NCBI GenBank assembly: GCA_964019415.1
Contig: OZ025888.1
Location: 585,001-649,000 of the forward strand
Source of the DNA: Ianthella basta
Taxonomy: Eukaryota; Porifera; Demospongiae; Verongiida; Ianthellidae
Direction: 5' to 3'
DNA length: 64,000 bases
Each line of letters starts with the position of its first letter. Positions within the stretch are counted from its first letter, which is position 1. Positions 29,339 to 64,000 of the stretch are shown piece by piece. The position numbers were made by a program, and so were the translations under genes. The notes beneath the pieces were generated by a model. The model made no database searches. It was not told the origin of the DNA and saw nothing but the letters and a program-made list of their open reading frames with translations.

Positions 29339-32300
29339 TTATGCATGATAAGAAGAAGTGTTAGAAGAGTGGGAGGAGCTTAAGGAAGTTGAGGCTGTAC
29401 TGGAGCTGCCCATGGATGTGTCCAGACGGAGTGATCGGTCCCTCATGTACTGTTCCACAACTTCCTCTGGGGTGGCCGGTCCAGGCACTGGCTCTTCCTC
29501 TATCACAACAGGAGGGAATTCAGGCTCACTCTCAGCCTCCATCAGGTGGCCAAACTGACGGAGTTCCTTCTCAACATACTGCAGGTCACTGTACGAGTCC
29601 CAAGTGTTACCTTTCTTGAGGTACTGAATCTGCTTTGCATGGTAGGCACCCACAGCCTCCATCAAAAGGAGTGTTCCTGCCACAGAAGCACCAGGGTCCA
29701 CCTTGTGGTTGCCTTCCCCTTGCTTGCCAGGAAGGCGGTTCACTGGGATAACGGGATCTCCCTCTACATCTAGCTCCAGGTTACCCACCTGCTCAATTTC
29801 CTTGCCTCCAATTAAGACCATTGCCTTCTCGCTATGGCAGGGTCCCACTTCTGGAATGGGCACCAAGAAATTGATGTATGACTTGAATGGCTTGAAGTAG
29901 GTTAGTATGTCACCATGATTCGAGAACTGCAGAATGTGGCCCGTGTCAAGGCCACACCAAAGTGTGTCCAAAACAGGGCAGAAGGCTGTAACAAGGGACT
30001 GGTGAAAGTCAATTTCTGTAGGGTAGGGCTTAGGAAACAAGACCTCATGTATGCTCCTCTTGAAAATCAGCTGCTTCTTCCCTGCATCCCAAGCTGACAT
30101 AGTGATCCCCCCAACATGTACTCCCCATACAACCCTCTCTTGGTGGTCCAGGGCAAGCCGCCCAACACTGTGTGGCCTCTCAATGGGGAGACACATTCCC
30201 CTTCTCTTCCAAAGTGTGACAGTCATGGAAGCTGATGGAGATCCCGTAGGAGACCCACAGGTCCCTGCCAACCACCTGCAGGCCACTGATATCTAGCTCT
30301 GTGAGCTTCTGCCAAGTCTGACGGCTTCCCAGTTCACAGTGAGCATCATCTGTCAGCACAAACACACATCCCTCCAGGGTACCAATGAAGATATTCTGGT
30401 CATTTGCTGACATGCAACACGGGGAGCAGTCCAACATGGGAATGGAGTGGGTATAAGATTTAGACCTAGCATTGAACACGTCGATCCTGGACTCCTTGTC
30501 ACCCCGGCTAGCCACCCATAGAAAGTCATTGTGGAAGGACATACAATTCACTTGCCATTTGTCACCAATCTGGAGGGTGTGCAAATGTTCAAAGTTTTCT
30601 CCACTGAAGACTTGAAGCTCTGCTCCTTTGTGGCTATCACAGCACACCCAGAACTCTGTGGGAGGAATGGTTTCCAGCATGTCTTTGCATGTGACTGGCT
30701 GCAGAGGACTGTGGTCGTGTCGGTGGCGTCTGTAGCATGCTTCCCTCATTGAGTGCTGGCTTCTCAGCCAGTGAGCCCCAATGGTGAGCTGCACCAGAGG
30801 GTTACAGAGAAGGGGGAGAATATGCGACATGGTAGGCCGATCTTTGGGCTGATAGGACAAACACTGCTTCATTATCATTGCAAGGTAAGGGACCCCAAAC
30901 TTGGCTACCTTCACATCATGAAGCATCGGAAGCTGCCCTTTTTCAACTGCAAAATTGATCAACTCTTTGTTGGGGCCCTTTGAGTTGTGAAAGTCATATG
31001 GTGGGCGCCGGGCAACCATCTGGTAGAGCACCATCCCAAAGGAGAATGTGTCCACTGACTGGTCATATGCGGGGTGCTCACTGCTCACCACTTCTGGTGC
31101 CATGAAGCCAGCAGTGCCACAGTGACTCTTTGCTCCACTTGGTGCTGCCTCTATCACCAAACCTAAGTCAGCAACCTTACAGTTGACCAGGTTGTTGGCC
31201 CGCATTGACCACAGCAAGACATTGTCTGCCTTCAGGTCACGATAAATGTAGGACTTTTGGTGAAGGAAGTCTAATCCAGCAGCAATCTGGGCCGCCATGC
31301 GAAAGAGGACGACGCGTGGCAGAGGTGCAGTCTTCTGTACTAGGGGGTCTTCAGGGTTCCCCCTGGAGCATACTCGAGTACTAGTGCAAGATGGGGTAGC
31401 TCTACAATCACTCCCAGCATTCCAGTGAGGGACGGGTGGTGGCATCTCTGGAGGATGATGGCCTCATTTCACAGCTCTCTCAGCGATTCACTCACACCCT
31501 TGATATACAGCTTGACTGCCACATCCTTCTCCTGATATGTACAAAGGTGAACTTCACTAAAATATCCACGCCCGAGCAACTGGCCATCTGTGTACACCAC
31601 TTCTGAGTGTGGGAGTAGGAAATCTCGGTGCAGGTCACCAAGGAGGATGTCTGGTGCCACCTCAAGAAGAGGAATGCTGTGCCCATTGCCGCATGAGAGA
31701 ATGAAAGGGTTAATTTTGGTTGCTGCATCTTCAGCAGAGCTATGTCCCACTTCCTCCACAGTGTGGTCAATCTGCTCCATGAGAATGTCCTTCTGGAAGA
31801 GAGCTGGTCTATAATGTTTCTCTTGCAGGCATGAGTAGCATGGGATCTGCTGTTTTGTGTGCTCCATGATTTCTGGATACCACTCAATCAGGAGCTTCTC
31901 ACAGAGGTCAATGATCTGGCCATAAATCCTCACACCCTCTGTAGTTGGGCTGGTTGTGATGCAGACACCGCTCCTTGGTGGGGAAGCTACACCCAAGACT
32001 TTCACATCCGCTGACCTTTCCTGGACCACTTCCTCTAAACCTTCAATACCTTCTAAAGACTCCACTCGGAAGAAGAGAGATGGACCTGTCACCTGCTCTG
32101 ATTCTACCAATGCAACACCCTGCCTTGGTCCCTGATAGAATATCCCTTTCTTCCAATACTTGAGGATGCTATCTCCGTCAGTGATGCTACACATGGGTGT
32201 AAAGGGGTATAGCTGCTGTGCCTCTCCCACCAGACCAAGAGAGCGCTGATAACTGTCATCGGAAGGAGACTGGATGCTGACTTTTTCCCATGGTGAGCTG

Positions 32301-35300
32301 GATAACTGCAGATCTATCTGTGTGTAGAGGTCAAGTAAGGCCTTCACACAGGGCACAAAGTAGAGTATGTGCACAAGGAATCGGCTCCAGAAGCCAGGAG
32401 GAGTCACGTGGCCAGGAGGGAAGATGAGGAGCCGTTGCCGGCACACCATGCCAGGAGGGTCACTGATGTCTGGTGGTTGCCCATCCGGTAGCATTGATGG
32501 GATGAGCAAGGAGTGCTTATCGACAGGGAGGGCCACCTCAAAGCGGTCCAGAAGAGCCATAAACTGGTCCAGAAACCCACTGTCTCTCCCTTTCATGAGG
32601 TCCTTGTAGAGGATGCCAAGGCACTGAATCCCCAGCACCCCATGCTTGATGTAAGGATTCTGCTTATGCACTGTGACAATGGCAGACATCATGTCAAACA
32701 GCCAGTGTGGGTCGATGAAGTAGAGGTCATCAAGGTTATTCTTGCGGTCATTGAAGTGCAGAATGGAGCCCAAATCATGGAGGAAAGTAGTTACTCTGTG
32801 TATGTCATCATCTGTGTACAAGTCGGCTTGCCCTAGGCTACTGATAAACTTCTTGTACTCAGTGCCATGCATCACTGCAGACAAGGCCCCCATCTTCACC
32901 TTCTTGTGCAGTGAGAGAAGGTGCTCATCCACAGCTTGGTACCTAGCAGGAATGGGCTGCTCCAGCAAAAGGTGAGGGTTTTCCAGTTTCTTGAGGAAGT
33001 GCTCCGGTTCAATGTACTTCCTTGCCTCCTCGTAGATGGAAGTGATCACGTTGTCCAAGTTGATCTTCTCCACAAGCCCAACATATGTGACTTTATCAAC
33101 TAGAAGTGAAAAGTGAACAGACAATGACAAGAGTGAATTAGGTGTTACTGTATGTTGTGCAAGTCTAGCAAGTTGTGCAAATGAAGAAAGTGAATTCCAC
33201 AATATGTCACGTACATAAAGGAGAATGCAGCAAAATCTAAAAATTCACAAGTACAAAATCCACTCACTTTGCAGTTTTGTATGCTGGGCTGCTAGGTCTG
33301 CAACCTCCTGGAGGTAGTCAGGCACTTTCTCCCTCTCCTCCTCCGACAGCCTGTCATAGTGAGTACCAATGATGACTACTCTAGACCCAGGGACACGTGC
33401 TGCAATATTGTCCAGCCAGGGCTTCAGCTCTGCAATGCCCTTCCTCTTATCTGTCATCTTCCAAAGCAGGAGGTAGAGGGAGCGCTTGGTGAAGAAGCAC
33501 TGGTAGGTAGCGTAGTACACATCTTGACCACCGAAGTCCCATAGTGTGAACAGAATGGGAGGACCAGCATCACCTTTGCAAGTCCATTCATTCACTTCAA
33601 TGCCAACTGTTGACTGGTTGTCAGCCTCTTTGACTCTCTTCCCAAGGAGACGTTTCATAAAAGTGGTCCTGCCACTTGCTGCCTGGCCAACAAGCATGAG
33701 CTTTATCCGGTAGTAAGGCTTCGTACCTTTGAGCAATGTTTCCAAGTACCCAATGCAGGCCTTGACATCTGCAGTAACTGGTTTGGGGGGATCAATGAGG
33801 TTGCCCAGTCCTTCGAGCTTCAGTGTGTGCAGGTTTTTCAAGCGACCCATCTCCTTAGGGAGCCTCTCAATGGCAGGGTTATTCTCAAGACTGAGGTACT
33901 CCAACCTTATAAAGCCCCCAAGACATTCCAGGTGTGTGGATAGCTGGTTGTGGCCCAGGTCGAGCCACTTCAAGCAATGTGCCTCTACCATGGGTGGAAG
34001 TGAATGGATCTTGTTGTGGGCAAGGTTGAGCCATTGCAGCTCAAATGACCACGCCTGGAGCTTCGGCAGGCTTGTGATGCGGTTGTGCAAGAGATTCAGC
34101 TCTTTGAGACTGGGTAGCGCAAGAAGTGCGGAAGGGATGGTGCAGAGCGAGTTGTGCTCCAAATTGATTACCACTGCATACCTCAGAAAGGCGCCCACGT
34201 CATCAGGGAGGCTGCAAATCCTGTTGTAAGAGAGGTAAAAGCGCTCCACAAAGATGATGCGACGCAGCCATGATGACTTCACAGACTCAATCTGCAGTCC
34301 CTTCCACTCAATAATATAGCTGTCTACATCCACCTTAGTGCGAACCAGTATTTCTTCATATACGCGTGAGTCCTGTATGTCCGAGGCCTGAAGGACGGCA
34401 TACTCGGTTGGGATCTTGCCTTCAGATACACGCTCTTGTACCAGTGGGAAGTCGGCATCCTGAATATCGGGGTTCTGGTATTGGCTGAGCTGGTGGCCAT
34501 ACAGCCACAGAACCAGCTGATAATCTCTGGTTTTGATAGCTTTAAGCATCAGCAACATGGCTCGAGCTGAGTGGCGCCTGCCCTCCAGGGAGTGGGAGAG
34601 GGCTAGCTCTAGGCTTATCTCCTTCCTGCTCTTCCCTTGCTCAATCATTAGGGCCACTGTCTCTGGGTTGTCTCGTTTAACTGATATGATGAGAGCTCTC
34701 TGCATGCATCCTGATTCCACTGGGAGGTCACTTCTCTCAAACAGCATCTTCATCAGTGGAGCATCATCTTGACTAGCAGCTCGGAGCACAGCTATGTTCA
34801 TAGGTAGAGAGGAGAGATGACACCGTTATACACCCTTACTGTATCACCTACTCATGAGTGCAGTCATTAATTTCATACAATAGTGTCATTAACCTGGCAG
34901 AATGGTAGGTGTGTTACTCGGTGATACCCTCCCATCAATTTTGCCTCTGCAGTGGAGTGATCACTGGTTGCCATTCATTGGGCTTCAAAGCTCAGCCTGC
35001 AGAGGCACTAATTCCAGTGTTACACTGTAACTGGCTGGTAGGCAGAATGCCCAGTAAACAATTTTGCCTCTGCAGTGGCTTACTGCAAGTATAACTGCCT
35101 CCTTTCAAAAATTTAACTCTGTACGTCAGCAGTTCCGTTTGCTACAATCACTAGACACACACTTCTGATTTTTTGGGGTGTTGTGACCATGGAGAATGTC
35201 TACAGCAAATCCATGCAGAACACAACATTACTGAATGGCTCCATAAAGAGCCTTCCCAAAGGCAAAAATATACGAGACAAACCTCACAGACACTCCAAAA

Positions 35301-44479: not shown

Positions 44480-47400
44480 CCATCTTGTCTAATCTTACCT
44501 CTTACCTCTTCATATCCTGCCAGATCTTACCTTGTCATATCTTGCCTTATATTACCTTGGCGTATCTTGCCAAATCTTGCCTAATCTTACCTTGTCATAT
44601 CTTGCCAAATCTTGCCTAATCTTACCTCTGTCATATCTTGACAAATCTTACCTAATCTTACCTTGTCATATCTTGCCAAATCTTGCCTAATCTTACCTTG
44701 TTGTATCTTGCCAGATCTCACCTTGTCGTATCTTGCCAGATCTTACCTTGGCGTATCTTGCCAAAACTTGCCAAATCTTACCTTGTCATATCTTGCCAAA
44801 TCTTGCCTGAATTTACCTCGTCATACCTTGCCAAATCTTGCCTAATCTTACCTCTTCATATCCTGCCAGATCTTACCTTGTCATATCTTGCTAAATCATG
44901 CCTTATTTTACCTTGGCGTATCTTGCCAAATCTTGCCTAATCTTACCTTGTCATATCTTGCCAAATCTTGCCTAATCTTACCTTGTCATATCTTGCCAAA
45001 TCTTGCCTAATCTCACCTTGTCGTATCTTGCCAGATCTTACCTTGTCGTATCTTGCCAGATCTTACCTTGTCTTATCTTGCCAAATCTTGCCTAATCTTA
45101 CCTTGGCGTATCTTGCCAAATCTTGCCTAATCTTACCTTCAGTTGTTGCATCTTGCCAAATCTTGCCTAAACTTACCTTGTCATATCTTGCCAAATCTTG
45201 TCTAATCTTACCTCTTCATATCCTGTCAGATCTTACCTTGTCATATCTTGCCAAATCTTGCCTAATCTTACCTTGGCGTATCTTGCCAAATCTTGCCTAA
45301 TCTTACCATGTCATATCTTGCCAAATCTTGCCTAATCTTACCTCTGTTGTATCTTGCCAAATCTTGCCTAGTCTTACCTTGTCATATCTTGCCAAATCTT
45401 GCCTAATCTTACCTCTGTCATATCTTGTCAAATCTTGCCTAATCTTACCTTGTCATATCTTGCCAAATCTTGCCTAATCTTACCTTGGCGTATCTAACCA
45501 GATCTTACCTTGTCGAATCTTGCCAGATCTTACCTTGTCATCTCTTGACAAATCTTACCTCGTCATATCTTGCCAAATCTTGCCTAATCTTACCTTGGCG
45601 TATCTTGACAAATCTTGCCAAATCTTCCCTCTGTCATATCTTGCCAAATCTTGCCTAATCTTATCTTGTCGTATATTGCCAAATCTTGCCTAATCTAACC
45701 TTGTTGTATCTTGCCAGATCTTACCTTGTCGTATCTTGCCAGATCTTATCTTGTCATATCTTGCCAAATCTTGCCAAATCTTACCTTGGCGTCTCTTGCC
45801 AAATCTTGCCAAATCCAACCTTGTCATATTTTGCCTAATCTTACCTTGTTGTATCTTGCCAAATCTTACCTTTTCGTATCTTGCCAGATCTTACCTTGTC
45901 AAATCTTGCCAGATCTTACCTTGTCGTATCTTGCCAGATCTTACCTTGTCATATCTTGCCAAATCTTGCCTAATCTTACCTTGGCGTATCTTGACAAATC
46001 TTGCCAAATCTTACCTTGTCATATCTTGCCAAATCTTGCCTAATCTAACCTTGTCGTATCTTGCCAGATCTTACCTTGTCGTATCTTGCCAGATCTTACC
46101 TTGTCATATCTTGCCAAATCTTGCCTAATCTTATATTGGCGTCTATTGCCAAATCCTGCCAAATCTTACCTTGTCATATTTTGCCAAATCTTGACTAATC
46201 TTACCTTGTCGTATCTTGCCTAATCTTACCTTGTCATATCTTGCCAAATCTTGCCTAATCTTACCTTGTCATATCTTGCCACATCTTGCCTTGTCATATC
46301 TTGCCAGATCTTACCTTGTCATATCTTGCCAAATATTGCCTAATCTTACCTTGGCGTATCTTGCCAAATCTTGCCAAATCTTACATTGTCATATCTTGCA
46401 AAATCTTGCCTAATCTTACCTTGTCGTATCTTGACAAATCTTGCCTAATCTTACCTTGTCATATCTTGCCAAATCTTGCCTAATCTAACCTTGTTGTATC
46501 TTGCCAGATCTTACCTTGTTGTATCTTGCCAGATCTTACCTTGTCATATCTTGCCAAATCTTGCCTAATCTTACCTTGGCGTCTCTTGCCAAATCTTGCC
46601 AAATCTTACCTTGTCATATTTTGCCAAATCTTACCTTATCATATCTTGCCAAATCTTGCAAATTCTTACCTTGTCATATCTTGCCAAATCTTGCCTAATC
46701 TTACCTTGTCGTATCTTGCCAAATCTTACCTTATCGTATCTTGCCAGATCTTACCTTGTCGAATCTCGCCAGATCTTACCTTGTCGTATCTTGCCAGATC
46801 TTACCTTGTCATATCTTGCCAAATCTTGCCTAATCTTACCTTGGCATATCTTGACAAATCTTGCCAAATCTTACCTTGTCATATCTTGCCAAATCTTGCC
46901 TAATCTAACCTTGTCGTATCTTGCCAGATCTTACCTTGTCGTATCTTGCCAGATCTTACCTTGTCATATCTTGCCAAATCTTGCCTAATCTTATATTGGC
47001 GTCTCTTGCCAAATCTTGCCAAATCTTACCTTGTCATATTTTGCCATATCTTGACTAATCTTACCTTGTCGTATCTTGCCAAATCTTACCTTGTCATATC
47101 TTGCCAAATCTTGCCTAATCTTACCTTGTCATACTTTGTCAAATCTTGCCTAATCTTACCTTGTCATATCTTGCCACATCTTGCCTTGTCATATCTTGCC
47201 AGATCTTACCTTGGCATATCTTGCCAAATTTTGCCTAATCTTACCTTGGCGTATCTTGCCAAATCTTGCATAATCTTACATTGTCATATCTTGCCAAATC
47301 TTGCCTAACCTTACCTTGTCGTATCTTGCCAAATCTTGCCTAATCTTACCTTGTCATATCTTGCCAAATCTTGCCTAATCTTACCTTGTCATATGTTGCC

Positions 47401-50400
47401 AAATCTTGCCTAATCTTACCTTGTCATATCTTGCCAAATCTTGCCTAATCTTACCTTGTCATATCTTGCCAAATCTTGCCTAATCTTACCTTGGCGTATC
47501 TTGCCAAATCTTGCCTAATCTTACCTTGGCGTATCTTGCCAAATCTTGCCTAATCTTACCTTCAGTTGTTGTATCTTGCCAAATCTTGCCTAAACTTACC
47601 TTGTCATATCTTGCCAAATCTTGCTTTATTTTACCTTGGCGTATCTTGCCAAATCTTGCCTAATCTTACATTGTCATATCTTGCCAAATCTTGCCTAATC
47701 TTACCTTGTCGTATTTTGCCAGATCTTACCTTGTCGTATCTTGCCAGATCATACCTGGTCATATCTTGCCAACTTGCCTAATCTTACCTTGTCGTATCTT
47801 GCCAAATCTTGCCTAATCTTACCTTGGCGTATCTTGACAAATCTTGCCAAATCTTACCTTGTCATATCTTGCCAAATCTTGCCTAATCTAACCTTGTCGT
47901 ATCTTGCCAGATCTTACCTTGTCGTATCTTGCCAGATCTTACCTTGTCATATCTTGCCAAATCTTGCCTAATCTTATATTGGCGTATCTTGCCAAATCTT
48001 GCTAAATCTTACCTTGTCATATTTTGCCATATCTTGACTAATCTTACCTTGTCGTATCTTGCCAAATCTTATTTTGTCATATCTTGCCAAATCTTGCCTA
48101 ATCTTACCATGTCATACCTTGCCAAATCTTGCCTAATCTTACCTTGTCATATCTTGCCACATCTTGCCTTGTAATATCTTGCCAGATCTTACCTTGTCAT
48201 ATCTTGCCAAATTTTGCCTAATCTTACCTTGGCGTATCTTGCAAAATCTTGCCAAATCTTACATTGTCATATCTTGCCATATCTTGACTAATCTTACCTT
48301 GTCGTATCTTGCCAAATCTTACTTTGTCATATCTTGCCAAATCTTGCCTAATCTTACCATGTCATACCTTGCCAAATCTTGCCTAATCTTACCTTGTCAT
48401 ATCTTGCCACATCTTGCCTTGTCATATCTTGCCAGATCTTACCTTGTCATATCTTGCCAAATTTTGCCTAATCTTACCTTGGCGTATCTTGCAAAATCTT
48501 GCCAAATCTTACCTTGTCATATCTTGCCAAATCTTGCCTAACCTTACCTTGTCGTATCTTGCCACATCTTGCCTAATCTTACCTTGTCATATCTTGCCAA
48601 ATCTTGCCTAATCTTACCTTGTCATATCTTGCCAAATCTTGCCTAATCTTACCTTGTCATATCTTGCCAAATCTTGCCTAATCTTACCTTGGCGTATCTT
48701 GCCAAATCTTGCCTAATCTTACCTTCAGTTGTTGTATCTTGCCAAATCTTGCCTAGTAAATTTATCTTGTAATATCTTGCCAAATCTTGCCTAATCTTAC
48801 CTTTGCGTATCTTGCCAAATCTTGCTTAATCTTACCTTGCCATATCTTGCCAAATCTTGCCTAATCTTACCTCTGTTGTATCTTGCCAAATCTTGCCAAA
48901 TCTAACCTTGTCATATTTTGCCAAATTTTGACTAATCTTACCTTTGCGTATCTTGCCAAATCTTGCTTAATCTTACCTTGCCATATCTTGCCAAATCTTG
49001 CCTAATCTTACCTCTGTTGTATCTTGCCAAATCTTGCCAAATCTAACCTTGTCATATTTTGCCAAATTTTGACTAATCTTACCTTGTCGTATCTTGCCAA
49101 ATCTTACCTTGTCATATCTTGCCAAATGTTACCTTATCATATCTTGCCAAATCTCGCGAAATCTTACCATGTCATATCTTGCCAAATCTTGCCTAATCTT
49201 ACCTTGTTGTATCTTGCCAAATCTTACCTTATTGTATCTTGCCAGATCTTACCTTGTCGAATCTTGCCAGATCTTACCTTGTCATCTCTTGCCAAATCTT
49301 ACCTTGTCATATCTTGCCAAATCTTGCCTAATCTTACCTTGGCGTATCTTGACAAATCTTGCCAAATCTTACCTTGTCATATTTTGCCAAATCTTACCTT
49401 ATCATATCTTGCCAAATCTTGCAAAATCTTACCATGTCATATCTTGCCAAATCTTACCTAATCTTACCTTGGCGTATCTAGCCAGATCTTACCTTGTCGA
49501 ATCTTGCCAGATCTTACCTTGTCATCTCTTGACAAATCTTACCTCGTCATATATTGCCAAATCTTGCCTAATCTTACCTTGGCGTATCTTAACAAATCTT
49601 GCCAAATCTTTCCTCTGTCATATCTTGCAAAACTTGCCTAATCTTACCTTGTCGTATCTTGCCAAATCTTGCCTAATCTAACCATCTTGTATCTTGCCAG
49701 ATCTTACCTTGTCGTATCTTGCCAGATCTTACCTTGTCATATCTTGCCAAATCTTGCCTAATCTTACCTTGGCGTCTCTTGCCAAATCTTGCCAAATCTT
49801 ACCTTGTCATATTTTGCCAAATCTTACCTTATCATATCTTGCCAAATCTAGCAAATTCTTACCTTGTCATATCTTGCCAAATCTTGCCTAATCTTACCTT
49901 GTCGTATCTTGCCAAATCTTACCTTTTCGTATCTTGCCAAATCTCACCTTGTCAAATCTTGCCAGATCTTACCTGGTCATATCTTGCCAGATCTTACCTT
50001 GTCATATCTTGCCAAATCTTGCCTAATCTTACCTTGGCGTATCTTGACAAATCTTGCCAAATCTTACCTTGTCATATCTTGCCAAATCTTGACTAATCTA
50101 ACCTTGTCGTATCTTGCCAGATCTTACCTTGTCGTATCTTGCCAGATCTTACCTTGTCATATCTTGCCAAATCTTGCCTAATCTTATATTGGCGTCTATT
50201 GCCAAATCCTGCCAAATCTTACCTTGTCATATTTTGCCAAATCTTGATTAATCTTACCTTGTCGTATCTTGCCAGATCTTACCTTGTCATATCTTGCCAA
50301 ATCTTGCCTAATCTTACCTTGTCATATCTTGCCACATCTTGCCTTGTCATATCTTGCCAGATCTTACCTTGTCATATCTTGCCAAATATTGCCTAATCTT

Positions 50401-50963
50401 ACCTTGGCGTATCTTGCCAAATCTTGCCAAATCTTACATTGTCATATCTTGCCAAATCTTGCCTAATCTTACCTTGTCGTATCTTGCCAAATCTTGCCTA
50501 ATCTTACCTTGTCATATCTTGCCAAATCTTGCCTAATCTAACCTTGTTGTATCTTGCCATATCTTACCTTGTCGTATCTTGCCAGATCTTACCTTGTCAT
50601 ATCTTGCAATATCTTGCCTAATCTTACCTTGTCGAATCTTGCCAAATCTTACCTTTTCGTATCTTGCCAGATCTTACCTTGTCAAATCTTGCCAGATCTT
50701 ACCTTGTCGTATCTTGCCAGATCTTACCTTGTCATATCTTGCCAAATCTTGCCTAATCTTACCTTGGCGTATCTTGACAAATCTTGCCACATCTTACCTT
50801 GTCATATCTTGCCAAATCTTGCCTAATCTAACCTTGTCGTATCTTGCCAGATCTTACCTTGTCATATCTTGCCAAATCTTGCCTAATCTTATATTGGCGT
50901 CTATTGCCAAATCTTGCCAAATCTTACTTTGTCATATTTTGCCAAATCTTGACTAATCTTACC

Positions 50964-51034
50964 TTTGTTGCTTGAAGGATCACTGGGCTTATACCACCAA
51001 CCAACTACACCAGTATTGGTGTTACAGTTGGTTG
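50964..51034 (+). repeat. Left inverted repeat of the hammerhead element
   Basis: 71 bp, beginning TTTGTTGCTTGAAGG, inserted directly after a satellite ATCTTACC module. Confidence 0.9.
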
Positions 51035-51115
51035 CTTCTATGTGTTGAAACCACAAGTGTTTTAGCTTGTGGTGAATACATATGGAGGTGGCATTCATCC
51101 TATTACCATCAGTAC

Positions 51116-51160
51116 GCCACACTGATGAGCCCCAATCAGGGCGAAACAGCTGTCTGTGGC
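51116..51160 (+). ncRNA. Type I hammerhead ribozyme
   Basis: Stem I: GCCACA (51116-51121) pairs with TGTGGC (51155-51160). Core CTGATGA 51122-51128. Stem II: GCCC (51129-51132), loop CAATCA, GGGC (51139-51142). GAAA 51143-51146. Stem III is minimal: A-C-A against U-G-U around a GC loop, or pairing in a dimer because ACAGCTGT is self-complementary. The predicted cleavage site is GTC, after C51154. A distal part of stem I, CATCCTA (51096-51102) with TAGGATG (51174-51180), closes an internal loop, as natural type I hammerheads need for loop contacts. Every invariant core base is present, so self-cleavage of plus-strand RNA is expected. Confidence 0.85.
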
Positions 51161-51241
51161 TCTTCCATCTTTGTAGGATGTTAGGGGGAAGGGAATCACT
51201 GGCTGCCAACTTACCAACTTAATAGGGCCTTTTGGGCCTCC

Positions 51242-51312
51242 CAACCAACTGTAACACCAATACTGGTGTAGTTGGTTGGTGGTATAAGCCAAGTGATCCT
51301 TCAAGCAACAAA
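51242..51312 (-). repeat. Right inverted repeat of the hammerhead element
   Basis: Reverse complement of the left arm with one mismatch (TGGGC against TTGGC). Near-identity suggests a recent origin or conversion between the arms. Confidence 0.9.
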
Positions 51313-54300
51313 CCTAGCCTTTGCAGGGGCCTAACTGCAAGAGTCACTTTTGAATAATCTTACCTTGTCGTATCTTGCCAAATCTTGCCTAATCTTACCT
51401 TGTTATACCTTGCCAAATCTTGCCTAATCTTACCTTGTCATATCTTGCCACATCTTGCCTTGTCATATCTTGCCAGATCTTACCTTGTCATATCTTGCCA
51501 AATATTGCCTAATCTTACCTTGGCGTATCTTGCCAAATCTTGCCAAATCTTACATTGTCATATCTTGCCAAATCTTGCCTAATCTTATCTTGTCGTATCT
51601 TGCCAAATCTTGCCTAATCTTACCTTGTCATATCTTGCCAAATCTTGCCTAATCTAACCTTGTTGTATCTTGCCAGATCTTACCTTGTCGTATCTTGCCA
51701 GATCTTACCTTGTCATATCTTGCCAAATCTTGCCTAATCTTACCTTGGCGTCTCTTGCCAAATCTTGCCAAATCTTACCTTGTCATATTTTGCCAAATCT
51801 TACCTTATCATATCTTGTCAAATCTTGGAAATTCTTACCATGTCATATCTTGCCAAATCTTGCCTAATCTTACCTTGTCGTATCTTGCCAAATCTTACCT
51901 TATCGTATCTTGCCAGATCTTACCTTGTCGTATCTTGCCAGATCTTACCTTGTCGTATCTTGCCAAATCTTGCCTAATCTTACCTTGGCGTATCTTGCCA
52001 AATCTTGCCAAATCTTACCTTGTCATATCTTGCCAAATCTTGCCTAATCTAACCTTGCCGTATCTTGCCAGATCTTACTTTGACGTATCTTGCCAGATCT
52101 TACCTTGTCATATCTTGCCAAATCTTGCCTAATCTTATATTGGCGTCTCTTGCCAAATCTTGCCAAATCTTACCTTGTCATATTTTGCCATATCTTGACT
52201 AATCTTACCTTGTCGTATCTTGCCAAATCTTACCTTGTCATATCTTGCCAAATCTTGCCTAATCTTACCTTGTCATACCTTGCCAAATCTTGCCTAATCT
52301 TACCTTGTCATATCTTGCCACATCTTGCCTTGTCATATCTTGCCAGATCTTACCTTGGCATATCTTGCCAAATTTTGCCTAATCTTACCTTGGCGTATCT
52401 TGCCAAATCTTGCCAAATCTTACATTGTCATATCTTGCCAAATCTTTCCTAACCTTACCTTGTCGTATCTTGCCACATCTTGCCTAATCTTACCTTGTCA
52501 TATCTTGCCAAATCTTGCCTAATCTTACCTTGTCATATCTTGCCAAATCTTGCCTAATCTTACCTTGTCATATCTTGCCAAATCTTGCCTAATCTTACCT
52601 TGGCGTATCTTGCCAAATCTTGCCTAATCTTACCTTCAGTTGTTGTATCTTGCCAAATTTTGCCTAATCTTACCTTGGCATATCTTGCCAAATCTTGCCA
52701 AATCTTACATTGTCATATCTTGCCTGATCTTGCTTATAATATTACCTTGTCGTATCTTGCCAAATCTTGCCTAATCTTACCTCTGTCATATCTTGCCAAA
52801 TCTTGCCTAATCTTTCCTTGTCATATCCTGCCAAATCTAGCCTAATCTTACCTTGTCATATCTTGTCAAATCTTGCCTAATCTTACCTTCTCATATCCTG
52901 CCAAATCTTGCCTAATCTTACCTTGTCATATCTTGCCAAATCTTGCCTAATCTTACCTTGTCATATCTTGCCACATCTTGCCTTGTCATATCTTATTAGA
53001 TCGTACCTTGTCATATCTTGCCAAATTTTGCCTAATCTTACCTTGGCGTATCTTGCCAAATCTTGCCTAATCTTACATTGTCATATCTTGCCAAATCTTG
53101 CATAATCTTACCTTGTCGTATCTTGCCAAATCTTGCCTAATCTTACCTCTGTCATATCTTGCCAAATCTTGCCTAATTTTACCTTGTCATATCTTGCCAA
53201 ATCTTGCCTAATCTTACCTTGTCATATCTTGCCAAATCTTGCCTAATCTTATCTTGTCATATCTTGCCAAATCTTGCCTAATCTTACCTTGGCGTATCTT
53301 GCCAAATCTTGCCTAATCTTACCTTCAGTTGTTGTATCTTGCCAAATCTTGCCTAAACTTACCTTGTCATATCTTGCCAAATCTTGCTTTATTTTACCTT
53401 GGCGTATCTTGCCAAATCTTGCCTACTCTTACATTGTCATATCTTGCCAAATCTTGCCTTGTCATATCTTGTCAGATCTTACCTTGTGATATCTTGCCAA
53501 ATCTTGCCTAATCTTACCTTCTCATATCTTGCTAAATCTTGCCTAATCTTACCTTGGCGTATCTTGACAAATCTTGCCTAATCTTACCTTCAGTTCTTGT
53601 ATCTTGCCAAATCTTGCCTAATCTTACCTTGTCGTATCTTGCCAAATCTTGCCTAATCTTATCTTGTCGTATCTTGCCAGATCTTACTTTGTCGTATCTT
53701 GCCTTATCTTACCTTGGCATATCTTGCCAAATCTTGCCTAATCTTACCTTGGCGTATCTTGACAAATCTTGCCAAATCTTACCTTGTCATATCTTGCCAA
53801 ATCTTGCCTAATCTAACCTTGTCGTATCTTGCCAGATCTTACCTTGTCGTATCTTGCCAGATCTTACCTGGTCATATCTTGCCAACTTGCCTAATCTTAC
53901 CTTGGCGTATCTTGCCAAATCTTGCCTAATCTTACCTTGGCGTATCTTGACAAAATCTTGCCAAATCTTACCTTGTCATATCTTGCCAAATCTTGCCTAA
54001 TCTAACCTTGTCGTATGTTGCCAGATCTTACCTTGTCGTATCTTGCCAGATCTTACCTTGTCATATCTTGCCAAATCTTGCCTAATCTTACATTGGCGTC
54101 TCTTGCCAAATCTTGCCAAATCTTACCTTGTCATATTTTGCCATATCATGACTAATCTTACCTTGTCGTATCTTGCCAAATCTTACCTTGTCATATCTTG
54201 CCAAATCTTGCCTAATCTTACCATGTCATATCTTGCCAAATCTTGCCTAATCTTACCTTGTCATATCTTGCCACATCTTGTCATGTCATATCTTGCCAGA

Positions 54301-57300
54301 TCTTACCTTGTCATATCTTGCCAAATTTTGCCTAATCTTACCTTGGCGTATCTTGCCAAATCTTGCCAAATCTTACATTGTCGTATCTTGCCAAATCTTG
54401 CCTAACCTTACCTTGTCGTATCTTGCCACATCTTGCCTAATCTTACCATGTCATATCTTGCCAAATCTTGTCTAATCTTACCTTGTCATATCTTGCCAAA
54501 TCTTGCCTAATCTTACCTTGTCATATCTTGCCAAATCTTACCTTGGCGTATCTTGCCAAATCTTGCCTAATCTTACCTTGGAGTATCTTGCCAAATCATG
54601 CCTAATCTTACATTCAGTTGTTGTATCTTGCCAAATCTTGCCTAAACTTACCTTGTCATATCTTGCCAAATCTTGCTTTATTTTACCTTGGCGTATCTTG
54701 CCAAATCTTGCCTAATCTTACATTGTCATATCTTGCCAAATCTTGCCTAATCTTACCTTGTCGTATCTTGCCAGATCTTACCTTGTCGTATCTTGCCAGA
54801 TCTTATATTACCTGGTCATATCTTGCCAACTTGCCTAATCTTACCTTGGCGTATCTTGCCAAATCTTGCCAAATCTTACATTGTCATATCTTGCCAAATC
54901 TTGCCTAATCTTATCTTGTCGTATCTTGCCAAATCTTGCCAAAGGTAATCTTACCTTGTCGTATCTTGCCAGATCATACCTTGTCATATCTTGTCAGATC
55001 TTACCTTGTCATATCTTGCCAAATTTTGCCTAATCTTACCATGGCGTATCTTGCCTAATCTTGCCAAATCTTGCCAAATCTTACATTGTCATTTCTTGCC
55101 AAATCTTGCCTAATCTTACCTTGTCGTATCTTGCCAAATCTTGCCTAATCTTACCTCTGTCATATCTTGCCAAATCTTGACTAATCTTCCCTTGTCATAT
55201 CTTGCCAAATCTAGCCTAATCTTACCTTGTCATATCTTGTCAAATCTTGACTAATCTTACCTTGTCATATCTTGCCAAATCTTGCCTAATCTTACCTTCT
55301 GTTGTTGTATCTTGCCAAATCTTGACTAATCTTACCTTGTCATATCTTGCTACATCTTGCCTTGTCATATCTTCCCAGATCTTACCTTGTCATATCTTGC
55401 CAAATTTTGCCTAATCTTACCTTGTCATATCTTGCCAAATCTTGCCTAATCTTACCTTGTCATATCTTGCCAAATCTTGCCTAATCGTGCCTTGGCGTAT
55501 CTTGCCAAATCTTGCCTAATCTTACCTTGTTGTATCTTGCCAGATCTTACCTTGTCGTATCTTGCCAGATCTTACCTCGTCATAACTTGCCAACTTGCTT
55601 AATCTTACCTTGGCGTATCTTGCCAAATCTTGCCTAATCTTACCTTGTCATATCTTGCCAAATCTTGCCAAAGGTGATCTTACCTTGTCGTATCTTGCCA
55701 GATCTTACCTTGTCATATCTTGCCAGATCTTACCTTGTCATATCTTGCCAAATTTTGCCTAATCTTACCTTGGCGTATCTTGCCAAATCTTGCCAAATCT
55801 TACATTGTCATATCTTGCCTAATCTTGCCTATAATCTTACCTTGTCGTATCTTGCCAAATCTTGCCTAATCTTACTTCTGTCATATCTTGCCAAATCTTG
55901 CCTAATCTTTCCTTGTCATATCCTGCCAAATCTAGCCTAATCTTACCTTGTCATATCTTGTCAAATCTTGCCTAATCTTATCTTGTCATATCTTGTCAAA
56001 TCTTGCCTAATCTTACCTTGTCATATCTTGCCAAATCTTGCCTAATCTTACCTTGTCATATCTTGCCACATCTTGCCTTGTCATATCTTATTAGATCGTA
56101 CCTTGTCATATCTTGCCAAATTTTGCCTAATCTTACCTTGGCGTATCTTGCCAAATCTTGCCATATCTTACATTGTCATATCTTGCCGAATCTTGCCTAA
56201 TCTTACCTTGTCGTATCTTGCCAAATCTTGCCTAATCTTACCTTGTCATATCTTGCCAAATCTTGCCTAATCTTACCTTGTCATATCTTGCCAAATCTTG
56301 CCTAATCTTACCTTGTCATATCTTGCCAAATCTTGCCTAATCTTGCCTTGTCATATCTTGCCAAATCTTGCCTAATCTTACCTTGTCATATCTTGCCAAA
56401 TCTTGCCTAATCTTACCTTGGCGTATCTTGCCAAATCTTGCCTAATCTTACCTTCAGTTGTTGTATCTTGCCAAATCTTGCCTAAACTTACCTTGTCATA
56501 TCTTGCCAAATCTTGCTTTATTTTACCTTGGCGTATCTTGCCAAATCTTGCCTACTCTTACATTGTCATATCTTGCCAAATCTTGCCTTGTCATATCTTG
56601 TCAGATCTTACCTTGTCATATCTTGCCAAATCTTGCCTAATCTTACCTTCTCATATCTTGCCAAATCTTGCCTAATCTTACCTTGGCGTATCTTGACAAA
56701 TCTTGCCTAATCTTACCTTCAGTTCTTGTATCTTGCCAAATCTTGCCTAATCTTACCTTGTCGTATCTTGCCAAATCTTGCCTAATCTTATCTTGTCGTA
56801 TCTTGCCAAATCCTACTTTGTCGTATCTTGCCTTATCTTACCTTGGCATATCTTGCCAAATCTTGCCTAATCTTACCTTGGCGTATCTTGACAAATCTTG
56901 CCAAATCTTACCTTGTCATATCTTGCCAAATCTTGCCTAATCTAACCTTGTCGTATCTTGCCAGATCTTACCTTGTCGTATCTTGCCAGATCTTACCTTG
57001 TCATATCTTGCCAAATCTTGCCTAATCTAACCTTGGCGTCTCTTGCCAAATCTTACCTTGTCATATTTTGCCAAATCTTACCTTTTCATTTCTTGCCAAA
57101 TCTTGCGAAATCTTACCATGTCATATCTTGCCAAATCTTACCTTGTCATATCTTGCCAAATCTTACCTTATCATATCTTGCCAAAATCTTGCGAAATCTT
57201 ACCATGTCATATCTTGCCAAATCTTGCCTAATCTTACCTTGTGGTATCTTGCCAAATCTTACCTTATTGTATCTTACTGGATCTTACCTTGTCGAATCTT

Positions 57301-60300
57301 GCCAGATCTTACCTTGTCATCTCTTGCCAAATCTTACCTTGTCATATCTTGACAAATCTTGCCTAATCTTGCCTTGGCGTATCTTGACAAATCTTACCTC
57401 TGTCATATCTTGACAAATCTTGCCTAATCTTACCTTGGCATATCTTGCCAAATCTTGCCTAATCTTACCTTGGAGTATCTTGCCAAATCTTGCCTAATCT
57501 TACCTTCAGATGTTGTATCTTGCCAAATCTTGCCTAGTATACTGACCTTGTCATATCTTGCCAAATCTTGTCTAATCTTACCTCTTCATATCCTGCCATA
57601 TCTTACCTTGTCATGTCTTGCCAAATCTTGCCTAATCTTACCTTGTCATATCTTGCCAAATCTTGCCTAATCTAACCTTGGCATCTCTTGCCAAATCTTG
57701 CCTAATCTAACCTTGTCATATTTTGCCAAATCTTGACTAATCTTACCTTGTCGTATCTTGCCAAATCTTACCTTGTCATATCTTGCCAATTCTTACCTTA
57801 TCATATCTTGCCAAATCTTGCAAAATCTTACCATGTCATATCTTGCCAAATCTTGCCTAATCTTACCTTGTCGTATCTTGCCAAATCTTACCTTATAGTA
57901 TCTTGCCAGATCTTACCTTGTCGAATCTTGCCAGATCTTACCTTGTCATCTCTTGCCAAATCTTACCTTGTCATATCTTGCCAAATCTTGCCTAATCTTA
58001 CCTTGGCGTATCTTAACAAATCTTGCCAAATCTTACCTATGTCATATCTTGCCAAATCTTGCCTAATCTTACCTTGTCGTAACTTGCCAAATCTTGCCTA
58101 ATCTTACCTTGTCGTATCTTGCCAGATATTACCTTGTCGTATCTTGCCTTATCTTACCTTGGCATATCTTGCCAAATCTTGCCTAATCTTACCTTGGCGT
58201 ATCTTGACAAATCTTGCCAAATCTTACCTTGTCATATCTTGCCAAATCTTACCTTGTCGTATCTTGCCAGATCTTACCTTGTCGTATCTTGCCAGAACTT
58301 ACGTTGTCATATCCTGCCAAATCTTGCCTAATCTTACCTTGGCGTCTCTTGCCAAATCTTGCCAAATCTTACCTTGTCATATTTTGCCAAATCTTACCTT
58401 ATCATATCTTGCCAAATCTTGGAAATTCTTACCATGTCATATCTTGCCAAATCTTGCCTAATTTTACCTTGTCGTATCTTGCCAAATCTTACCTTATCAT
58501 ATCTTGCCAGATCTTACCTTGTCGAATCTTGCCAGATCTTACATTACCGTATTGTGCCAGATCTTACCTTGTCATATCTTGCCAAATCTTGCCAAACCTT
58601 ACCTTGTCATATCTTGCGAAATCTTGCCTAATCTAATCTTGTCGTATCTTGCCAGATCTTACCTTGTTGTATCTTGCCAGATCTTACCTTGTCATATCTT
58701 GCCAAATCTTGCCTAATCTTACCTTGTCATATCTTACAAAATCTTGCCTAATCTTACCTTGTCATATTTTGCCACATCTTGCCTTGTCATATCTTGCCAG
58801 ATCTTACCTTGCCATATCTTGCCAAAAATTGTCTAATCTTACCTTGGCGTATCTTGCCAAATCTTGCCTAATCTTACCTTGTCATATCTTTCCAAATCTT
58901 GCCTAATCTTACCTTGTCATATCTTGCCAAATCTTGCCTAATCTTACCTTCTCATATCTTGACAAATTTTTTTAATCTAACCTTGTCATATATTGCCAAA
59001 TCTTGCCTAATCTTACCATGGCGTATCTTGCCTAATCTTGTCATATCTTGTCAGATCTTACCTTGTCATATCTTGCCAAATTTTGCCTAATCTTACCTTG
59101 GCGTATCTTGCCAAATCTTGCCAAATCTTACATTGTCATATCTTGCCAAATCTTGCCTAATCTTACCTTGTCGTATCTTGCCAAATCTTGACTAATCTTA
59201 CCTTGTCATATCTTGCCAAATCTTGCCTAATCTTACATTGTCATATCTTGCCAAATATTGCCTAATCTTACCTTGTCATATCTTGCCAAATCTTGCCTAA
59301 TTTTACCTTGTCATATCTTGCCAAATCTTGCCTAATCTTACATTGTCATATCTTGCCAAATCTTGCCTAATCTTACCATGTCATTTCTTGCCACATCTTG
59401 CCTAATCTTACCTTGTCATATCTTGCCAAATCTTGCCTAATCTTACCTTGTCATCTCTTGCCAAATCTTGCCTAATCTTGCCTCGGCGTATCTTGCCAAA
59501 TCTTGCCTAATCTTACCTTGTTGTATCTTGCCAGATCTTACCTTGTCGTATCTTGCCAGATCTTACCTCGTCATATCTTGCCAACTTGCCTATTCTTACC
59601 TAGGCGTATCTTGCCAAATCTTGCCTAATCTTACCTTGCCATATCTTGCCAAATCTAGCCAAATCTTACCTTGTCATATCTTGCCAAATCTTGCCTAATC
59701 TTACTTTGTCGTATCTTGCCAAATCTTGCCTAATCTTACCTCTGTCATATCTTGCCAAATCTTGACTAATCTTACCTTGTCATATCTTGCCAAATCTAGC
59801 CTAATCTTACCTTGTCATATCTTGTCAAATCTTGACTAATCTTACCTTGTCATATCTTGCCAAATCTTGCCTAATCTTACCTTCTGTTGTTGTATCTTGC
59901 CAAATCTTGACTAATCTTACCTTGTCATATATTGCCACATCTAGCCTTGTCATATCTTGCCACATCTTACCTTGTCATATCTTGCCAAATTTTGCCTAAT
60001 CTTACCTTGGCGTATCTTGCCAAATCTTGCCAAATCTTACATTGTCATATATATCTTGCCAAATCGTGTCTAATCTTACCTTGTCATACCTTGCCAAATC
60101 TTGCCTAATCTTACCTTGTCATATCTTGCCAAATCTTGCCTAATCTTACTTTGTCATATCTTGCCAAATCTTACCTTGTCATTTCTTGCCAAATCTTGCC
60201 TAATCTTACCTTGTCATATCTTGCCAAATCTTGCCTAATCTTACCTTGTCATCTCTTGCCAAATCTTGCCTAATCTTACCTTGGCGTATCTTGCCAAATC

Positions 60301-63300
60301 TTGCCTAATCTTACCTTGTTGTATCTTGCCAGATCTTACCTTGTCGTATCTTGCCAGATCTTACCTCGTCATATCTTGCCAACTTGCCTAATCTTACCTT
60401 GGCATATCTTGCCAAATCTTGCCTAATCTTACCTTGTCATATCTTGCCAAATCTTGCCAAAGGTGATCTTACCTTGTCGTAACTTGCCAGATCTTACCTT
60501 GTCATATCTTGCCAAATCTTGCCTAATCTTACCTTGTCATATCTTGCCAAATCTTGCCTAATCTTACCTTGTCATATCTTGCCAAATTTTGCCTAATCTT
60601 ACCTTGGCGTATCTTGCCAAATCTTGCCAAATCTTACATTGTCATATCTTGCCAAATCTTGCCTAATCTTACCTTGTCGTATCTTGCCACATCATGCCTA
60701 ATCTTACCTCTGTCATATCTTGCCAAATCTTGCCTAATCTTACCTTGTCATATCTTGCCACATCTTACCTTGTCATATCTTGCCAGATCTTACCTTGTCA
60801 TATCTTGCCAAATTTTGCCTAATCTTACTTTGGCGTATCTTGCCAAATCTTGCCAAATCTTACCTTGTCATATCTTGCCAAATCTTGCCTAATCTTACCT
60901 TGGCATATCTTGCCAAATCTTGCCTAATCTAACCTTGTCATTTCTTGCCACATCTTGCCTAATCTTACCTTGTCATATCTTGCCAAATCTTGCCTAATCT
61001 TACCTTGTCATCTCTTGCCAAATCTTGCCTAATCTTGCCTCGGCGTATCTTGCCAAATCTTGCCTAATCTTACCTTGTTGTATCTTGCCAGATCTTACCT
61101 TGTCGTATCTTGCCAGATCTTACCTCGTCATATCTTGCCAACTTGCCTATTCTTACCTTGGCGTATCTTGCCAAATCTTGCCTAATCTTACCTTGCCATA
61201 TCTTGCCAAATCTAGCCAAATCTTACCTTGTCATATCTTGCCAAATCTTGCCTAATCTTACCTTGTCGTATCTTGCCAAATCTTGCCTAATCTTACCTCT
61301 GTCATATCTTGCCAAATCTTGACTAATCTTACCTTGTCATATCTTGCCAAATCTAGCCTAATCTTACCTTGTCATATCTTGTCAAATCTTGACTAATCTT
61401 ACCTTGTCATATCTTGCCAAATCTTGCCTAATCTTACCTTCTGTTGTTGTATCTTGCCAAATCTTGCCTAATCTTACCTTGTCATATATTGCCACATCTA
61501 GCCTTGTCATATCTTGCCACATCTTACCTTGTCATATCTTGCCAAATTTTGCCTAATCTTACCTTGGCGTATCTTGCCAAATCTTGCCAAATCTTACATT
61601 GTCATATATATCTTGCCAAATCGTGTCTAATCTTACCTTGTCATACCTTGCCAAATCTTGCCTAATCTTACCTTGTCATATCTTGCCAAATCTTGCCTAA
61701 TCTTACTTTGTCATATCTTGCCAAATCTTGCCTAATCTTACCTTGTCATATCTTGCCAAATTTTGCCTAATCTTACCTTGGCGTATCTTTTCGTATCTTG
61801 CCAGATCTTACCTTGTCAAATCTTGCCAGATCTTACCTTGTCGTATCTTGCCAGATCTTACCTTGTCATATCTTGCCAAATCTTGCCTAATCTTACCTTG
61901 GCGTATCTTGACAAATCTTGCCAAATCTTACCTTGTCATATCTTGCCAAATCTTGCCTAATCTTACCTTGTCATATCTTGCCAAATCTTGCCTAATCTTA
62001 CCTTGTCATCTCTTGCCAAATCTTGCCTAATCTTACCTTGGCGTATCTTGCCAAATCTTGCCTAATCTTACCTTGTTGTATCTTGCCAGATCTTACCTTG
62101 TCGTATCTTGCCAGATCTTACCTCGTCATATCTTGCCAACTTGCCTAATCTTACCTTGGCATATCTTGCCAAATCTTGCCTAATCTTACCTTGTCATATC
62201 TTGCCAAATCTTGCCAAAGGTGATCTTACCTTGTCGTAACTTGCCAGATCTTACCTTGTCATATCTTGCCAAATCTTGCCTAATCTTACCTTGTCATATC
62301 TTGCCAAATCTTGCCTAATCTTACCTTGTCATATCTTGCCAAATTTTGCCTAATCTTACCTTGGCGTATCTTGCCAAATCTTGCCAAATCTTACATTGTC
62401 ATATCTTGCCAAATCTTGCCTAATCTTACCTTGTCGTATCTTGCCACATCATGCCTAATCTTACCTCTGTCATATCTTGCCAAATCTTGCCTAATCTTAC
62501 CTTGTCATATCTTGCCACATCTTACCTTGTCATATCTTGCCAGATCTTACCTTGTCATATCTTGCCAAATTTTGCCTAATCTTACTTTGGCGTATCTTGC
62601 CAAATCTTGCCAAATCTTACCTTGTCATATCTTGCCAAATCTTGCCTAATCTTACCTTGTCGTATCTTGCCAAATCTTGCCTAATCTTACCTTGTCATAT
62701 CTTGCCAAATCTTGCCTAATCTTACCTTGTCATATCTTGCCAAATCTTGCCTAATCTTACCTTGTCGTATCTTGCCAAATCTTGCCTAATCTTACCTTGT
62801 CATATCTTGCCAAATCTTGCCTAATCTTACCTTGTCATATCTTGCCAAATCTTGCTTAATCTTACCTTGGCGTATCTTGCCAAATCTTGCCTAATCTTAC
62901 CTTCAGCTGTTGTATCTTGCCAAATCTTGCCTAAGGTTACTTTGTCATATCTTGCCAAATCTTGCCTAATCTTACCTTGTCATCTCTTGCCAAATCTTGC
63001 CTAATCTTATATTGGCGTATCTTGCCAAATCTTGCCTAATCTTACCTTGTTGTATCTTGCCAGATCTTACCTTGTTGTATCTTGCCAGATCTTACCTCGT
63101 CATATCTTGCCAACTTGCCTAATCTTACCTTGTCGTATCTTGCCAAATCTTGCCTAATCTTACCTTGTCATATCTTGCCAAATCTTGCCAAAGGTGATCT
63201 TACCTTGTCGTAACTTGCCAGATCTTACCTTGTCATATCTTGCCAAATCTTGCCTAATCTTACCTTGTCATATCTTGCCAAATCTTGCCTAATCTTACCT

Positions 63301-64000
63301 TGTCATATCTTGCCAAATTTTGCCTAATCTTACCTTGGCGTATCTTGCCAAATCTTGCCAAATCTTACATTGTCATATCTTGCCAAATCTTGCCTAATCT
63401 TACCTTGTCATATCTTGCCAAATCTAGCCTAATCTTACCTTGTCATATCTTGTCAAATCTTGCCTAATCTTACCTTGTCATATCTTGCCAAATCTTGCCT
63501 AATCTTACCTTGTTATATCTTGCCAAATCTTGCCTAATCTTACCTTGTCATATCTTGCCACATCTTGCCTTGTCATATCTTGCCAGATCTTTCCTTGTCA
63601 TATCTTGCCAAATTTTGCCTAATCTTACCTTGGCGTATCTTGCCAAATCTTGCCAAATCTTACATTGTCATATCTTGCCAAATCTTGCCTAATCTTACCT
63701 TGTCGTATCTTGCCAAATCTTGCCTAATCTTACCTTGTCATATCTTGCCAAATCTTGCCTAATCTTACCTTGTCGTATCTTGCCAAATCTTGCCTAATCT
63801 TACCTTGTCATATCTTGCCAAATCTTGCCTAATCTTACCTTGTCATATCTTGCCAAATCTTGCCTAATCTTACCTTGTCATATCTTGCCAAATCTTGCCT
63901 AATCTTACCTTGTGATATCTTGCCAAATCTTGCCTAATCTTACCTTGGCGTATCTTGCCAAATCTTGCCTAATCTTACCTTCAGCTGTTGTATCTTGCCA

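What the first reader, a model, noticed from the sequence alone, without database searches (positions are those of the whole stretch)
51096..51180. Complete hammerhead ribozyme inside an inverted-repeat element embedded in satellite DNA
All conserved hammerhead core residues, three stems and a GTC cleavage site are present in 45 bases, with a distal stem I helix (CATCCTA/TAGGATG) added. The two arms of the carrier are 70/71 identical and the element breaks an otherwise continuous 19.5-kb satellite. Hammerheads are known from Penelope-like elements and retrozymes. The inverted arms around one ribozyme, together with the satellite location, are unusual.
Basis: partly seen in the sequence, partly recalled or inferred. 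Interest (0 to 1): 0.85.

Follow-up and report, generated by a model that had tools for sequence, protein, structure and literature searches.

The report
Hammerhead retrozyme with Penelope-type insertion ends
A tiny gene-less mobile element that encodes a self-cutting RNA has inserted into satellite DNA, and the way its copies begin and end matches that of Penelope retrotransposons in the same genome, which suggests whose enzyme copies it.

Summary
The hammerhead is real: Rfam type I, 38.7 bits, over the gathering score. Its core is intact in 50 of 50 spanning copies read. The carrier is not a terminal-inverted-repeat element: it is two pieces of one 374-nt unit, head to head. The unit is multicopy and often tandem.

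In 19 of 19 distinct two-sided insertions one outer end lies near unit 270 (A), the other near 316 (B); one more insertion is one-sided, one is masked. Target-site duplications of 12-16 bp flank 20 of 20 searched.

Penelope-like elements (PLEs) of the same genome follow the same pattern: 7 of 7 complete insertions have one shorter and one longer end, 30-37 nt apart, with duplications of 12-14 bp in six and 9 bp in one.

Best explanation: a non-autonomous retrozyme, reverse-transcribed from both ends of a staggered cut by PLE machinery. Papers I could read leave the helper open, with PLEs favoured. Circular RNA, activity and the helper itself are unproven, and unit and PLEs share no detectable sequence. 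Insertions seem enriched in this satellite (5 of 21, against ~0.2% of the genome by rough estimate).

The parts
44500..63970 (+). Satellite array, ~35-bp unit, the target of the insertion
   Evidence: TRF; 144 exact copies of a 24-mer of the unit in the window, 3278 in the genome
50954..50965 (.). Left copy of the 12-bp target-site duplication TAATCTTACCTT (its last 2 bases are shared with the element end)
   Evidence: satellite spacing restored on removal
50964..51034 (-). A arm: unit positions 271 to 201 in reverse; outer end is site A
   Evidence: 71/71 match to the 374-nt unit
51033..51354 (+). B arm: unit 366-374 then 1-313 forward; overlaps the A arm by 2 nt of microhomology; outer end is site B
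   Evidence: 323/325 match to the unit over 51033-51357; end set by the duplication at 51354
51116..51160 (+). Type I hammerhead ribozyme, predicted cleavage after 51154 (unit 113)
   Evidence: Rfam RF00163, 38.7 bits; core intact in 50 of 50 spanning copies
51096..51102 (+). 5' strand of distal stem I (CATCCTA)
   Evidence: in the consensus fold of four units it is paired in the three near-identical ones, while the diverged L049 breaks 3 of the 8 pairs in that register
51174..51180 (+). 3' strand of distal stem I (TAGGATG)
   Evidence: as above
51312..51354 (+). 'Tail' segment between sites A and B, carried by one arm only
   Evidence: unit 271-313 by the mapping; A/B ends
51355..51366 (.). 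Right copy of the 12-bp target-site duplication

Best explanation
The feature is one insertion of a non-autonomous, gene-less retroelement: a 374-nt type I hammerhead 'retrozyme' unit. SHOWN by sequence: the typical insertion has two arms copied from the same unit, inverted and head to head, with variable inner junctions; one outer end is at site A and the other at site B, ~45 nt apart in the unit; duplications of 12-16 bp flank it. PLEs in the same genome follow the same kind of end rule. INFERRED: the RNA is cut by its hammerhead and circularised, or left as a multimer. A PLE protein (RT + GIY-YIG endonuclease) binds it, cuts both target strands about 12 nt apart, and starts reverse transcription from both target 3' ends, one at A and one at B, in unpaired AC-rich loops. 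The polymerases can go round or along more than one unit. The two antisense cDNAs then join inside, often by microhomology. The result is inverted arms with one 'tail'. The window copy is a short product of this process that landed in a satellite.
For: Unit and tandem copies. End rule: 22 insertions were aligned (window, L009-L028, L002); 19 distinct two-sided ones all have one A and one B end; set aside: L018 (one-sided), L026 (runs into N), L028 (mirror copy of L027). In a wider but capped listing, 6 of 6 further clusters with both outer ends listed also have one A-like and one B-like end (read by eye). TSD 12-16 bp in 20 of 20 searched, against 0 of 600 random pairs with a match over 9. Same-genome PLEs: RVT_1 and GIY-YIG in a frame of each of two families (L041, L045; L053 is 97% like L045); head-to-head arms up to 1554 bp at 100%; in 7 of 7 complete insertions one arm ends 48-53 nt and the other 80-88 nt past the same hammerhead-like motif, TSD 12-14 in six and 9 in one. 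Published PLE biochemistry: two adjacent internal RT start sites explain the 'tail', initiation lies in an AC-rich stem loop, both strands are cut and extended (PMC11167929). Sites A and B lie in some of the most open stretches of the predicted circular fold (4 and 13 of 374 windows as open or more). 29 of 38 arms read through the ribozyme cut site and 17 of 38 exceed one unit, so the template was circular or uncut there.
Against: The unit shares no sequence with the PLE loci examined, and the PLE ends differ from the unit's, so what the enzyme would recognise is unknown. The complete PLE insertions come from two families; the true helper may be another. The PLE hammerhead-like motif was found by eye and pattern; Rfam does not match it in four PLE loci even at E 5. 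L018 is one-sided. L023 copied a mixed dimer, so its template was not a monomer circle. Arm lengths do not correlate (rho 0.06, p 0.80) and inner-junction clustering is weak. The covariation term of the unit fold is unfavourable (+2.56). Insertions of LINEs in this genome were not examined as a control. Nothing shows RNA, cleavage or current activity.
Confidence: 0.8

Rival explanations
1. The retrozyme is moved by a LINE-type RT; the inverted arms are twin-priming products.
For: The retrozyme paper names LINEs beside PLEs as possible helpers (PMC7229834 discussion). TSDs of 12-16 bp would also suit a LINE (recalled).
Against: Inversion is the rule (19 of the 20 distinct insertions with both ends readable), and the outer ends are two fixed internal sites, one of each; no poly-A is seen at the printed ends (by eye). 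PLEs of the same genome show the same kind of rule. LINE insertions of this genome were not examined.
Confidence: 0.08
2. A cut-and-paste transposon or MITE whose 71-bp arms are terminal inverted repeats, with a captured hammerhead.
For: 71-nt arms, 99% complementary, with a flanking duplication.
Against: Arms differ in length between copies, the two outer ends are different unit positions, and tandem units and variable inner junctions occur.
Confidence: 0.02
3. Inverted arms are assembly fold-backs or local DNA rearrangements of ordinary direct tandem repeats.
For: Some loci are larger palindromes with flanks included (L011), and L027/L028 are mirror copies near the two ends of contig C15.
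Against: Duplications of 12-16 bp in 20 of 20 searched and the A/B ends point to insertion events, not fold-backs.
Confidence: 0.03
4. A variant of the best explanation, not exclusive with it: same PLE machinery, but the usual template is a linear uncut multimer instead of a circle, and the ribozyme plays no part in insertion.
For: L023: in both arms the outer unit is whole and the next one lacks the same 8 nt. In vitro, PLE insertion did not need hammerhead cleavage (PMC11167929).
Against: The passes of L020 (both arms) and of the long arm of L009 are identical, which suits repeated reading of one circle, though homogeneous genomic arrays would give the same.
Confidence: 0.4

Closest known systems
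Metazoan non-LTR retrozymes (Cervera and de la Pena, PMC7229834; PMC7761336)
   Same: Type I hammerhead, short unit (374 nt; published ~170-400), GC below 50% (48%), no ORF, tandem copies, TSD longer than 4 bp
   Different: Inverted head-to-head arms and two fixed outer ends one 'tail' apart; the word 'inverted' does not occur in the main text of PMC7229834. These papers leave the helper open.
Penelope-like elements with GIY-YIG (PMC11167929, PMC3846280)
   Same: Head-to-head inverted ends, one 'tail' at one end, TSDs of roughly 9-14 bp here and 8-10 bp in the passages read, RT start in an AC-rich loop
   Different: The unit has no ORF; it has a hammerhead that meets the Rfam model, unlike the PLE motif here; sequence unrelated; sites A/B lie ~156 and ~200 nt past the cut site instead of ~50 and ~85
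Plant LTR retrozymes (PMC4918200, seen only in search listings)
   Same: Non-autonomous hammerhead element thought to use circular RNA
   Different: Plant ones: type III hammerhead, LTRs with PBS/PPT, 4-bp TSD (as described in PMC7229834)

Membership tests
Metazoan non-LTR retrozyme | Type I hammerhead in the repeat | tested here: met
   RF00163 38.7 bits; 50 of 50 spanning copies keep the core, mirror copies and four relatives found by their hammerhead included
Metazoan non-LTR retrozyme | Short unit of a few hundred bp, dimer or longer tandem copies, GC below 50% | tested here: met
   374-nt unit, identical tandem units in L009; GC 48%; the window copy itself is about one unit
Metazoan non-LTR retrozyme | No protein-coding capacity | tested here: met
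   Longest frame 84 aa in three tandem units
Metazoan non-LTR retrozyme | TSD larger than 4 bp | tested here: met
   12-16 bp in 20 of 20 searched
Metazoan non-LTR retrozyme | Accumulates as circular RNA after self-cleavage | not testable with these tools
   No RNA data
Metazoan non-LTR retrozyme | Host is a metazoan | not tested
   The Wnt family search did not complete; LRR-Roc, kinase and NHL domains in the window do not settle it
Penelope-like element (autonomous) | ORF with RT and GIY-YIG | tested here: not met
   The 20 inserts measured are 389-1896 bp of unit sequence
Penelope-like element (autonomous) | 'Tail' at the 3' end of one of two inverted ends | tested here: met
   19 of 19 distinct two-sided insertions have exactly one tail
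Penelope-like element (autonomous) | Minimal hammerhead lacking helix III | tested here: not met
   The unit matches the full Rfam model. A by-eye minimal motif in the same-genome PLEs is not matched by Rfam
TIR DNA transposon / MITE | Fixed symmetrical termini | tested here: not met
   Two different end positions, variable arms

The most novel reading that the evidence does not exclude
Retrozymes are the 'SINEs' of Penelope-like elements, and each insertion records a double-ended target-primed reverse transcription: two RT subunits start at the two adjacent sites of one RNA, one on each cut target strand, sometimes circling a ribozyme-made RNA ring several times. L023, where both arms copied the same mixed dimer in the same order, fits one shared RNA per insertion. 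The same rule would explain why a PLE 'tail' sits on only one end.
Probability: 0.5. Interest if true: 0.78.

Novelty: new variant of a known kind. Interest (0 to 1): 0.62.

Why it matters
[quoted passage not shown] Here the insertion ends carry the kind of signature that PLEs leave, and PLEs of the same genome show it too. That turns a proposal into a testable assignment. The one-A-one-B rule also gives a sequence read-out of how PLE integration may be completed, steps that PMC11167929 calls yet to be validated.

Tried and rejected
Chance hammerhead: rejected. TIR transposon or MITE: rejected. Carrier PLE with RT inside the same element: rejected for the insertions measured. Sequence homology between unit and PLE loci: none found. 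Run-off at the ribozyme 5' end (unit 114): 1 of 38 inner arm ends falls exactly there (L015), so self-cleaved linear monomers are not the usual template. Inner-junction hot spots: weak. Of six looks, the best two gave 36 of 2000 and 54 of 2000 simulations at or above the observed value; not claimed. Arm-length correlation: none. Target motif at the nicks: TSDs beginning AC/AA (11 of 19) or ending GT/TG/TT (13 of 19) hint at pairing with AC-rich loops, but matching for the longest repeat biases this; not claimed. Rfam support for the PLE hammerhead: none. Naming the organism: not done; the Wnt search did not complete.

Full report
WHAT WAS CHECKED. The Rfam scan of the whole window returns one gathering-level hit, Hammerhead_1 at 51116-51160 (+), 38.7 bits against 34, over the full 45-position model. 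The 71-nt inverted arms and the 35-bp satellite from ~44.5 kb to ~63.97 kb are also there.

THE UNIT. The window lies at C21:585001-649000 of an unnamed 209-Mb, 96-contig genome, in which a query of the element gives 232 matches (a lower bound). They show a 374-nt unit, often in tandem; two successive units of L009 are identical. Against this unit the window element falls into two pieces: reverse 271 to 201 (50964-51034) and forward 366-374 plus 1 onward (from 51033 to 51354), overlapping by 2 nt. So the 'inverted arms around one ribozyme' are two copies of one unit, head to head, of which only the longer reaches the ribozyme.

THE END RULE. Twenty-two insertions were aligned to the unit (window, L009-L028, L002). 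L028 mirrors L027, L018 has one arm only, and L026 runs into masked bases. The remaining 19 are two-sided, and in 19 of 19 one outer end is at unit 265-280 (A) and the other at 313-321 (B). The extreme values, 280 in L022 and 321 in L021, are where satellite flank happens to match the unit; the duplications put those ends back at A and B. If ends were picked independently the chance would be about 2e-6. In a second genome listing, which is capped, 6 of 6 further clusters whose two outer ends were both listed (C4:8190002, C14:355948, C14:3752813, C23:3367108, C3:8575359, C18:394312) also have one A-like and one B-like end, though C4 and C18 stray to unit 262 and 325 (read by eye). Other clusters there had only one outer end listed. 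Inner junctions vary: of the 19, 11 overlap by 1-15 nt, 2 abut, and 6 have 2-8 extra nt (positions, listed in the script).

TARGET-SITE DUPLICATIONS. Of 20 insertions searched (L026 and L028 left out), 20 have an exact duplication of 12-16 bp; 600 random pairs of flank positions from 15 non-satellite loci gave at most 9. In the window the duplication is TAATCTTACCTT; leaving out the element and one copy restores the 35-bp spacing of the satellite across the join.

THE HELPER. A GIY-YIG search of the genome gave 55 matches, many in -/+ neighbour pairs, and 20 loci. Eleven of these loci make up six complete insertions of one family (five pairs and L039); the other nine were not tested for both ends. 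L053, fetched apart, is a seventh, of a second family (97% like L045). Frames of L041 and L045 carry RVT_1 and GIY-YIG. Head-to-head inverted arms reach 1554 bp at 100% identity. Each insertion has, in both arms, a motif that looks like a minimal hammerhead; this is by eye and pattern, and Rfam does not match it in L039, L041, L045 or L053 even at E 5. Measured from its presumed cut, in 7 of 7 insertions one arm ends at 48-53 nt and the other at 80-88 nt; TSDs are 12-14 bp in the six of family 1 and 9 bp in L053 (in shuffled flanks 0 of 210 reached 12 and 4 of 210 reached 9 or more). This is the published PLE pattern: in a bdelloid element an inverted pLTR, a 31-bp tail optionally present at one of the inverted ends and a 9-bp TSD (PMC3846280, passages), explained by two adjacent internal RT start sites in an anole PLE (PMC11167929, two of four parts and passages read). 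The unit and the PLEs share the rule but not the sequence.

TEMPLATE. In 29 of 38 arms the copy runs through the ribozyme cut site, and 17 of 38 arms exceed one unit, so the template there was a circle or an uncut multimer. Unit copies within an insertion differ little (41 of 7397 compared positions within arms; 61 of 4096 between arms, 41 of them one deletion in L021) against 1425 of 75925 between loci. The long arm of L009 and both arms of L020 are identical in every pass. L023 is not: in both its arms the outer unit is whole and the next unit lacks the same 8 nt. That suggests a mixed multimer copied by both arms from the same starting unit. I read this as one shared RNA, but two RNAs from one locus would look alike; the 8 nt lie in a short direct repeat, so repeated slippage is not excluded; and of the single-base differences, one (unit 22) does not follow the same order and two (147, 243) are private to one unit.

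RNA STRUCTURE. The circular unit folds at -152 kcal/mol against -97 (s.d. 5.7) for 50 mononucleotide shuffles. Sites A and B fall in unpaired stretches among the most open in the unit. A relative ~72% alike over its unit (L049, found through its hammerhead) keeps TTTGAACAACC at site B. Seven of 108 consensus pairs show a change on both sides in a set of four sequences of which three are near-identical, and the overall covariation term is unfavourable (+2.56), so comparative support for the fold is slight.

SATELLITE. A 24-mer of the satellite occurs 3278 times in the genome and 144 times in the window array, a rough estimate of 0.21% of the genome; 5 of 21 distinct insertions (window, L013, L021, L022, L027; flanks judged by eye) lie in it (binomial 8e-10; 6e-5 if the satellite is ten times commoner). 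The five have different inner junctions; L013 and L021 share the same duplicated 12-mer in opposite orientation. Whether this is targeting or better survival is open, and the sample was chosen by similarity to the window copy.

LIMITS. Literature was searched with the terms in an open-access library only. I saw no description of such paired ends in a retrozyme in the passages and sections read (PMC7229834, PMC7761336, PMC11722881, PMC8969392, PMC8490949), which is not proof of absence. Three papers that could hold it are not in the library.

Noticed in passing
genome C22:2908307-2932627 (coordinates only, not fetched): Two blocks of retrozyme-related units of about 317-366 bp (82-93% like the young unit), mostly on the minus strand at 2908-2924 kb and on the plus strand at 2925-2933 kb: the element seems to have grown into satellite-like arrays here, themselves head to head.
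   Followed up: no
L011 (C4:3403000-3412900): Two mirror copies of one insertion with mirrored flanks form a palindrome of about 2.2 kb or more.
   Followed up: partly
L027 and L028 (C15, ~74 kb and ~69 kb from the two contig ends): What looks like the same insertion with its satellite flanks occurs in mirror image near both ends of one contig, as if subtelomeric blocks had been exchanged.
   Followed up: partly
window satellite; L013, L021, L022, L027: All five satellite insertions have duplications that include the TTACC part of the 35-bp unit; L013 and L021 have the identical 12-mer.
   Followed up: partly
window 30180-34825 (-): Exons with LRR and Roc domains followed by a protein kinase domain, as in Roco-type proteins.
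   Followed up: partly
L051: A diverged relative with an inverted arm and, by eye, an AGTACAAGTGGG duplication at its ends: an older subfamily seems to follow the same architecture with a different tail sequence.
   Followed up: partly
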